Positions 17,894 through 18,850 of a DNA stretch of 64,000 nucleotides are shown here, piece after piece; position 1 is the stretch's first letter, and each line of letters starts with the position of its first letter. The translations under genes and the position numbers were made by a program. The DNA comes from Flavobacteriales bacterium (GTDB lineage: Bacteria; Bacteroidota; Bacteroidia; Flavobacteriales_F; PHOS-HE28). The DNA lies in the NCBI GenBank assembly GCA_016788295.1, contig JAEUSY010000009.1:1-64000 (forward strand). Direction: 5' to 3'. The notes under the pieces were generated by a model. That model made no database searches. It was not told the origin of the DNA and saw nothing but the letters and a program-made list of their open reading frames with translations.

Positions 17894-17901
17894 TATCTTC
17901 G
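17894..17901 (+). promoter_or_regulatory. promoter box TATCTTCG before the tRNA-Leu remnant
   Basis: The box fits TAnnTTTG with one change and lies 14 bases before the first base of the tRNA-like sequence, a sensible distance for a tRNA promoter. Transcription from here would cross the remnant, the GIY-YIG gene and the intact tRNA-Leu. Confidence 0.45.
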
Positions 17902-17929
17902 CCGCCCCAACACCCACCCAGGTGGCGGA

Positions 17930-17949
17930 CCTGCCTGCCGGTAGGCAGG
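17930..17949. repeat. 20-base palindrome, first insertion
   Basis: The sequence is cctgcctgccggtaggcagg, palindromic except for one position. It sits between gcgga and atcggtaga of the tRNA D-arm. The half-site cctgcctgccg also occurs in repeat copy R1 (597-607). Confidence 0.8.
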
Positions 17950-17958
17950 ATCGGTAGA

Positions 17959-17978
17959 CCTGCCTGCCGGCAGGCAGG
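17959..17978. repeat. 20-base palindrome, second insertion
   Basis: The sequence is cctgcctgccggcaggcagg, a perfect palindrome, lying nine bases after the first one, between tcggtaga and cgc of the D-arm. Both insertions follow an A. Confidence 0.8.
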
Positions 17979-18007
17979 CGCGCTTGTCTCAAACACCAGT
18001 TTTGTAA

Positions 18008-18262
18008 ATGACCTGCGCGGTTTATGCCCTGGCAAGCGCCGAGAAGGAGTACATCTATGTTGGCTTGAGCATGGATGTAAAGCGTAGGATCGATGAGCAT
18101 CAGCGTGGAAAGGAGCGCACCACACGAGCTTATCGTCCATTTGAAGTATTGATCGTGGAGTTCCTTCCTGATCGAACAGAAGCCCGGAAGCGGGAAAAGT
18201 TCCTCAAGTCAGGTGCGGGGAAGGAGTTTCTTAAAGAACTTCGCAGCCGCAAAAAGAACTAA
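18008..18262 (+). CDS. GIY-YIG nuclease family protein (single domain)
   Basis: The 84-residue protein is one GIY-YIG domain (COG2827 type). The first strand motif is VYALASAEKEYIYVGLSMDVKRRI, with Y18 and Y..VG in the usual GIY/YIG places and Arg in DVKRRIDEH; the end shows EARKREKFLKSGAGKEFLKEL, the conserved Glu and helix. These small stand-alone proteins are frequent in Bacteroidota, but their role is not established. It lies between a broken tRNA-Leu copy (7 bases upstream) and the intact tRNA-Leu (5 bases downstream), on the same strand, which ties it to the tRNA locus. Confidence 0.85.
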   Translation: MTCAVYALASAEKEYIYVGLSMDVKRRIDEHQRGKERTTRAYRPFEVLIVEFLPDRTEARKREKFLKSGAGKEFLKELRSRKKN

Positions 18263-18267
18263 GCCCC

Positions 18268-18349
18268 ACCCAGGTGGCGGAATCGGTAGACGCGCTGGTC
18301 TCAAACACCAGTGAAGCAATTCGTGCGGGTTCGAGTCCCGCCCTGGGTA
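18268..18349 (+). tRNA. tRNA-Leu (anticodon CAA)
   Basis: The 82-base sequence folds as a complete class II tRNA. The acceptor stem is acccagg/cctgggt with discriminator A. The D-arm is gcg...cgc around gaatcggtaga. The anticodon stem is ctggt/accag with loop ctcaaac, giving anticodon CAA (codon UUG). A long variable arm typical of tRNA-Leu follows, then T-arm gcggg-ttcgagt-cccgc. The 3' CCA is not encoded. It lies 5 bases after the GIY-YIG stop codon. Confidence 0.95.
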
Positions 18350-18354
18350 CACTG

Positions 18355-18379
18355 GTACGGCCGCACTGTGCGGCCGTAC
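18355..18379 (+). terminator. hairpin after tRNA-Leu, possible terminator
   Basis: An 11-bp perfect stem (gtacggccgca / tgcggccgtac) with a 3-base loop starts 5 bases after the tRNA. Only tactttc follows, so the T-run is weak. It ends 15 bases before the start codon of the next gene, so it could also affect that gene. Confidence 0.5.
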
Positions 18380-18394
18380 TACTTTCACGGCCCC

Positions 18395-18850
18395 ATGTCC
18401 ACCGCACAAGACGCCCTTGTTCATGCCGATCCCGCCAAGCAGGACCGCTATGACAGCGCTTACATGCGGATGGCCTCGGAGTGGGCGAAACTGAGCCATT
18501 GCACCCGCAAAAAGGTCGGCGCCATCATTGTGAAGCATGGCATGATCATCAGCGATGGCTACAACGGAACACCCACCGGTTTCCCCAACGACTGTGAAGA
18601 TGCGGAAGGCCTCACCCACTGGTACGTGCTGCACGCCGAGGCCAATGCCATCCTGAAAGTGGCCCGCAGCACCAACAATGCGCGTGGTGCGACGTTATAC
18701 CTCACGCACTCCCCCTGCAAGGAATGCAGCAAGCTCATCCTGCAGGCGGGCATCAAACGCCTGGTCTACCTCGATGCCTACAAGGACACTTCGGGCCTTG
18801 CATTGCTGGAAAAGGGCGGATTGATGGTCCGTAAATTGGAGCTGCCCTAA
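18395..18850 (+). CDS. dCMP deaminase family protein
   Basis: The 151-residue protein is a zinc-dependent cytidine/deoxycytidylate deaminase. The HAE motif is in VLHAEANAI (residues ~76-84) and the PCxxC motif in SPCKECSKL (~104-112), giving the zinc His, two Cys and catalytic Glu. An extra Cys/His near residues 38-40 (LSHCTRKKVGA) fits dCMP deaminases, which carry a second metal site. It would supply dUMP for thymidylate synthesis. The ATG at 18395 was chosen because the longer frame runs back into the tRNA. It is 5 bases before the ctpA start codon, so the two are probably cotranscribed. Confidence 0.9.
   Translation: MSTAQDALVHADPAKQDRYDSAYMRMASEWAKLSHCTRKKVGAIIVKHGMIISDGYNGTPTGFPNDCEDAEGLTHWYVLHAEANAILKVARSTNNARGATLYLTHSPCKECSKLILQAGIKRLVYLDAYKDTSGLALLEKGGLMVRKLELP

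What the first reader, a model, noticed from the sequence alone, without database searches (positions are those of the whole stretch)
17894..18349. Duplicated tRNA-Leu locus carrying a GIY-YIG gene between a broken and an intact tRNA
A promoter box (17894) precedes the first ~45 bases of tRNA-Leu(CAA), then the GIY-YIG gene begins 7 bases later and ends 5 bases before a complete tRNA-Leu. This is the arrangement expected if an element with a small GIY-YIG nuclease inserted into, or tandem-duplicated, a tRNA gene while restoring a functional copy downstream. The intact tRNA has lost a promoter of its own, so its expression may depend on reading through the nuclease gene. A tRNA-dwelling GIY-YIG cassette would be a minimal mobile unit.
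Basis: partly seen in the sequence, partly recalled or inferred. Interest (0 to 1): 0.8.

Follow-up and report, generated by a model that had tools for sequence, protein, structure and literature searches.

The report
tRNA-dwelling GIY-YIG nuclease cassette
A tiny selfish-looking DNA cassette, one 84-residue DNA-cutting enzyme gene plus a broken half-tRNA studded with 20-letter hairpins, sits against an intact leucine tRNA gene, and many relatives sit against many kinds of tRNA gene in Bacteroidota and Patescibacteria.

Summary
Same-genus genomes give 25 loci without the gene and four with it, all four with the same layout. The GIY-YIG subfamily dwells at tRNA genes: 77 of 90 Bacteroidota and 23 of 30 Patescibacteria loci have a same-strand tRNA within 300 bp, usually plus a broken tRNA half. 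Its protein tree follows tRNA isotype (21 changes, shuffled 57) better than host family (51, shuffled 71). Cross-family DNA similarity stops at the cassette edges. Hairpins sit in D/T loops of the broken halves; their class follows nuclease clade, and the commonest palindrome co-occurs with the nuclease in both phyla (p=4e-7, 8e-12). Best explanation: a free-standing GIY-YIG homing cassette that enters tRNA genes, restores one full tRNA and leaves a half-tRNA relic. It resembles phage SegB but is chromosomal, single-domain and carries a linked hairpin component. Cleavage, homing and the hairpins' role are inferred, not shown. No earlier description was found in the open-access library searched.

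The parts
17894..17902 (+). native tRNA promoter-like box TATCTTCGC, now upstream of the relic and nuclease gene
   Evidence: identical or near-identical box upstream of the intact tRNA at all 24 scored loci lacking the gene (PWM 9.7-16.6 bits); 16.6 bits here
17916..17929 (+). tRNA-Leu relic, nt 1-14
   Evidence: alignment to intact copy
17930..17949 (+). 20-nt palindrome inserted in the relic D-loop (one-mismatch variant)
17950..17958 (+). tRNA-Leu relic, nt 15-23
17959..17978 (+). 20-nt perfect palindrome CCTGCCTGCCGGCAGGCAGG at the D-loop/D-stem boundary
17979..18000 (+). tRNA-Leu relic, nt 24-45, anticodon arm; rest of tRNA absent
18008..18262 (+). 84-aa single-domain GIY-YIG nuclease gene
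   Evidence: PF01541 1.3e-15; dN/dS 0.03-0.14 between relatives, dS near saturation; AF2 pLDDT 96
18236..18244 (+). weaker promoter-like box GAACTTCGC inside the ORF 3' end, 23 nt before the intact tRNA
   Evidence: 7.9 bits; background 95% 5.4, 99% 16.6; the same box survives in L021 where the gene is lost
18268..18350 (+). intact tRNA-Leu(CAA), only CAA tRNA found in the genome
   Evidence: ARAGORN, Rfam 59.3 bits, genome tRNA list
18355..18379 (+). terminator-like palindrome after the tRNA (host sequence, a similar one also at the gene-less locus L006)
   Evidence: read directly

Best explanation
This is a minimal tRNA-homing cassette of about 350 bp. A free-standing GIY-YIG nuclease cuts a tRNA gene of one isotype (inferred). 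Repair then copies the cassette in (inferred), with the tRNA halves serving as short homology arms, so that the host is left with one complete tRNA plus a broken half. In the window the broken half is the 5' half, still behind the native promoter, so that promoter probably now drives relic plus nuclease, while the tRNA is read through or driven by a weaker box at the ORF end. Other family members keep the tRNA upstream and leave a broken 3' half downstream. The unit spreads horizontally, stacks in tandem and decays, leaving scars. The hairpins in the relic's D or T loops belong to the cassette biology; most likely they destroy the nuclease target or the tRNA fold in the relic. SHOWN here: duplication, loci with and without the gene, stacking, scars, isotype-tracking phylogeny, cassette-bounded similarity across families, statistical linkage of hairpins to the nuclease. 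INFERRED: DNA cleavage, the repair route, transcription, the role of the hairpins.
For: Same locus in 29 same-genus genomes: 25 without the gene, 4 occupied with identical layout; second-round insertions in L013 and L017, 3' scars in L007, L008, L013, L017. tRNA within 300 bp on the same strand in 77/90 Bacteroidota and 23/30 Patescibacteria loci; broken second copy in 89/110 GIY loci against 1/25 gene-less loci (itself a scar) and 1/30 other tRNA loci. 5' relics start at tRNA nt 1, 3' relics nearly all end at the tRNA 3' end. Tandem arrays of up to 8 units. Isotype label 21 changes on the protein tree against 57 shuffled; host family 51 against 71. Cross-family DNA similarity bounded by the cassette. 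Purifying selection. Precedent: phage SegB cuts inside tRNA genes and amplifies tRNA-segB units (PMC13096335).
Against: No cleavage assay. The protein is the catalytic domain only, so the source of its site specificity is unexplained. The intact tRNA in the occupied window is identical to the tRNA at the gene-less locus L006, so self-protection cannot come from that copy's sequence. Alignment A1 was seeded mainly with tRNA-linked members, which favours tRNA-linked hits. The tree rests on 74 columns with many open forks. In the genus, presence is patchy but window-to-G003 nuclease identity (86%) is close to their deaminase identity (88%), so part of the pattern may be inheritance plus loss.
Confidence: 0.72

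Rival explanations
1. A two-component mobile system: the GIY-YIG nuclease recognises and mobilises the small palindromes, as RAYT transposases do for REP sequences; the half-tRNA is the landing pad.
For: The nuclease is present in 25 of 28 Bacteroidota genomes with the exact palindrome against 148 of 364 without it (p 4e-7), and in 60 of 65 against 105 of 222 Patescibacteria genomes (p 8e-12). Hairpin class follows nuclease clade: 20/39 against 3/56, host-stratified p 1.5e-4. Clean insertions without duplication, an A next to the palindrome in 49/57 sites.
Against: Palindromes lie mostly away from the nuclease in many genomes; a few genomes have them without the gene; hairpins may simply travel with the cassette; no GIY-YIG enzyme is known to me to insert DNA.
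Confidence: 0.3
2. The hairpins are unrelated background repeats that accumulate in the relic because it is free of constraint.
For: The same palindrome occurs at 16 places (2 mismatches allowed) in this genome, many inside open frames.
Against: 29/34 clean relic insertions lie in or at the edge of the D or T loop (expected 25%); several genomes have only 1-3 exact copies and one is in the relic; class follows nuclease clade.
Confidence: 0.2
3. Ordinary host UPF0213-type nuclease gene that lies beside a tRNA after a chance tandem duplication; not mobile.
For: Closest solved relatives are UPF0213 proteins and SLX1.
Against: Association repeats over many isotypes and two phyla, with loci lacking the gene in the same genus and cassette-bounded similarity.
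Confidence: 0.05
4. Remnant of a group I intron whose endonuclease gene survived.
For: A relative (L096) sits beside a tRNA-Asn that carries a group I intron.
Against: No group I intron in the window or in the other 14 loci searched; insertions duplicate tRNA halves, which introns do not.
Confidence: 0.03
5. A host-serving tRNA-amplification device against tRNA-cutting defence or toxins, as proposed for phage SegB.
For: Tandem arrays; SegB precedent.
Against: Arrays amplify the broken half and the nuclease, not intact tRNA; the family is almost absent from phages.
Confidence: 0.07

Closest known systems
SegB, free-standing GIY-YIG homing endonuclease of T-even phages (PMC13096335)
   Same: GIY-YIG nuclease next to tRNA genes of many isotypes; tandem tRNA-nuclease units; cuts within tRNA genes at a motif (RAWTSGAAC) whose complement resembles the T-loop
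   Different: phage-borne; here chromosomal, catalytic domain only, with half-tRNA relics and linked hairpins, and a protein tree sorted by isotype
UPF0213 / YhbQ-type GIY-YIG proteins and SLX1
   Same: closest solved relatives by sequence and fold (1zg2, 1ywl, SLX1)
   Different: not known to me from tRNA cassettes
Genomic islands and phages integrating in tRNA genes by tyrosine recombinase
   Same: insert in a tRNA gene and restore a full copy
   Different: no integrase in the cassette, and either the 5' or the 3' half can be the restored part
Group I introns with GIY-YIG endonucleases in tRNA genes
   Same: homing nuclease, tRNA target
   Different: no intron in the window; duplicates half the tRNA instead of splicing
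REP sequences with RAYT transposases
   Same: short dispersed palindromes tied to one enzyme family
   Different: enzyme here is GIY-YIG, not a Y1 transposase; mobilisation not shown

Membership tests
Free-standing GIY-YIG homing endonuclease | GIY-YIG domain with conserved catalytic-type residues | tested here: met
   PF01541; Y17, R27, H31, E63 invariant and Y6 near-invariant in A1; that these are the catalytic positions is from general knowledge
Free-standing GIY-YIG homing endonuclease | alleles with and without the gene at one site | tested here: met
   25 loci without, 4 with
Free-standing GIY-YIG homing endonuclease | cuts the allele lacking the gene and is copied into it | not testable with these tools
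   needs biochemistry
SegB-type | association with tRNA genes | tested here: met
SegB-type | sequence relationship to SegB itself | not tested
   only weak PHROG homing-endonuclease matches; SegB not compared directly
UPF0213-type GIY-YIG | single-domain GIY-YIG protein related to UPF0213 | tested here: met
   1zg2 E 4e-10, Foldseek 3.4e-4; AF2 model is one domain
tRNA-targeting integrative element | encodes a tyrosine or serine recombinase | tested here: not met
   the cassette between relic and tRNA holds only the GIY-YIG ORF
Group I intron | catalytic intron core | tested here: not met
   Rfam scan of the window finds only the tRNA
REP/RAYT | Y1 (HUH) transposase linked to the palindromes | not tested
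   the linked enzyme found is GIY-YIG; RAYT genes were not searched
MITE | target-site duplication at the palindromes | tested here: not met
   relic insertions are clean 20-nt additions

The most novel reading that the evidence does not exclude
A cross-phylum two-component selfish system in which a single-domain GIY-YIG nuclease lives in tRNA genes and recognises or mobilises its own class of 15-20 nt hairpins, each nuclease clade with its own hairpin.
Probability: 0.3. Interest if true: 0.92.

Novelty: new variant of a known kind. Interest (0 to 1): 0.82.

Why it matters
It suggests that tRNA genes of a large part of bacterial diversity (173 of 392 Bacteroidota and 165 of 287 Patescibacteria genomes carry the subfamily at E 1e-12) host a very small selfish element that needs neither integrase nor intron. 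It offers an explanation for scattered half-tRNAs, for GIY-YIG proteins with tRNA-encoded tails, and for a 20-nt palindrome shared exactly between phyla. It also makes the link between a nuclease and short palindromic repeats directly testable.

Tried and rejected
Group I intron in the window: none. Phage origin: only 2 IMG/VR contigs and ten Rhizobium phage records at 36% identity. Palindrome-bearing tRNA-Asp as an essential tRNA: rejected, another tRNA-Asp exists. Literature: ten full-text searches gave no description of this cassette; the palindrome string is in no paper held. The library lacks most subscription papers and all bioRxiv preprints. Simple stem extension of palindromes by their flanks: not seen, 42 of 57 have none. 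A site-specific single-stranded-DNA GIY-YIG family (Ssn), recalled from memory, was looked for but no paper on it was found, so it is not used as evidence.

Full report
OBSERVATION. The sequence at 17894-18350 holds, in order, a box TATCTTCGC (17894-17902), tRNA-Leu nt 1-45 (17916-18000), an ORF 18008-18262 and an intact tRNA-Leu(CAA) 18268-18350. The partial copy aligns to the intact one with score 54 against a shuffle maximum of 28. It is interrupted by two clean 20-nt insertions, CCTGCCTGCCGGTAGGCAGG and CCTGCCTGCCGGCAGGCAGG, towards the start and at the end of the D-loop. The ORF is a GIY-YIG domain. No other tRNA-Leu(CAA) was found in the genome.

LOCI WITHOUT THE GENE. The downstream deaminase (18395-18850) finds the same locus in the same genus. 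Of 29 loci that hold the tRNA, 25 lack the gene and four carry it: the window, G003 (L008), G025 (L013) and G032 (L017), all as half tRNA - GIY-YIG - intact tRNA. In L013 and L017 the sequence just upstream of the half tRNA is itself the 3' end of an older GIY-YIG copy, so the intact tRNA was hit again. L007, L008, L013 and L017 carry a broken 3' tRNA end with a hairpin downstream of the intact tRNA. L021 has lost the gene but keeps a recognisable piece of its 3' end. The gene is under strong purifying selection (dN/dS 0.03 to 0.14, with dS near or beyond saturation).

THE FAMILY. Relatives in named genomes come from Bacteroidota, Patescibacteria and Ignavibacteriales, and nearly all lie against a tRNA. 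A profile of 25 such proteins (A1) matches 173 of 392 Bacteroidota genomes and 165 of 287 Patescibacteria genomes. Of 90 fetched Bacteroidota loci, 77 have a same-strand tRNA within 300 bp and 2 an opposite-strand one; of 30 Patescibacteria loci, 23. A random gene would do so in under 1% of cases (estimate from 49 tRNAs in 3.8 Mb). Because A1 was seeded mainly with tRNA-linked proteins, the fraction holds for this subfamily, not for all GIY-YIG proteins.

GEOMETRY. A second, broken copy of the same tRNA is found in 89 of 110 GIY loci with a tRNA but in 1 of 25 gene-less loci (L007, a true scar) and 1 of 30 other tRNA loci of this genome. Two polarities occur: 5' relic upstream with the intact tRNA downstream (33 cases), and intact tRNA upstream with 3' relic downstream (51 cases). 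The 5' relics start at nt 1 and the 3' relics nearly all end at the tRNA 3' end, while the inner break varies, mostly around the anticodon arm for 5' relics. Tandem arrays occur, for example eight units of about 365 bp in L189, each with a tRNA 3' end and a nuclease gene, the broken ends with hairpins.

MOBILITY. On a tree of 95 proteins the tRNA isotype needs 21 changes (57 when shuffled; retention 0.75) and host family 51 (71 when shuffled; retention 0.39). DNA similarity between different families ends at the cassette: L103/L107 are 76% identical over the cassette and about 62-66% outside, near the 60% of random stretches under the same aligner. The simplest reading is horizontal movement of a target-specific unit whose tRNA halves are the homology arms. 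That repair route is inference.

HAIRPINS. Relics carry a stem of 6 or more in 68 of 83 cases, against 67 of 313 control stretches and 38 of 125 intact tRNAs. Of 34 clean insertions, 29 lie in or at the edge of the D or T loop (expected 25%) and 32 in any loop or loop edge (expected 51%); the cases are not all independent. The exact palindrome is found in 28 Bacteroidota genomes, 25 of which carry the nuclease (148 of the other 364 do; p 4e-7), and in 65 Patescibacteria genomes, 60 of which carry it (105 of the other 222; p 8e-12). These tests do not correct for relatedness of the genomes. The CCTGCC class goes with one nuclease clade (20 of 39 against 3 of 56), also within host families (p 1.5e-4). 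So the hairpins are tied to the nuclease, but whether they protect the relic from cutting, unfold it, hinder recombination or are moved by the enzyme is open. In favour of protection: T-loop sites fall in the sequence that resembles the complement of the SegB motif.

EXPRESSION. The native box upstream of the tRNA is present at all 24 scored gene-less loci and stands before the relic in the window and L008. Before the intact tRNA the best box is GAACTTCGC in the ORF end (7.9 bits, above the 95% and below the 99% background level), kept in L021 without the gene. Read-through and a weak own promoter are both possible. In L017 the ORF runs 47 nt into the tRNA, so the protein gets a tRNA-encoded tail.

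STRUCTURE AND COMPARISON. AlphaFold2 gives one compact GIY-YIG domain (pLDDT 96). The closest solved structures are UPF0213 proteins, SLX1 and, weakly, I-TevI. The nearest functional precedent is phage SegB (PMC13096335). The family is nearly absent from viruses. No paper in the library describes the chromosomal cassette, but the library is partial, so novelty is provisional.

VERDICT. Real, general and surprising. Filed as a new variant of free-standing GIY-YIG homing elements, with cutting and homing untested.

Noticed in passing
L075 1450-1541 (own genome C53:136134-136224): A tRNA-Asp(GTC) in an array of odd, low-scoring tRNAs carries the palindrome CCTGCCTGCCGGAAGGCAGG at the start of its T-loop; another tRNA-Asp exists elsewhere (L169), so this one may be a spare.
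   Followed up: partly
L096 1501-2040: GIY-YIG cassette next to a tRNA-Asn that also carries a group I intron; a hairpin-bearing tRNA-Asn 5' half lies upstream.
   Followed up: partly
own genome and other Bacteroidota loci L065-L079, L130-L157: The palindrome also sits outside tRNAs, many copies within open frames, with an A next to it in 49 of 57 sites; how it moves is unknown.
   Followed up: partly
L189 1403-4285: Eight tandem tRNA-3'-end / nuclease units with no intact tRNA found in the 5.5 kb fetched.
   Followed up: partly
G000:C53:133000-136800 (L256): Cluster of nine tRNA genes, several of low score, that looks like a secondary tRNA array.
   Followed up: no
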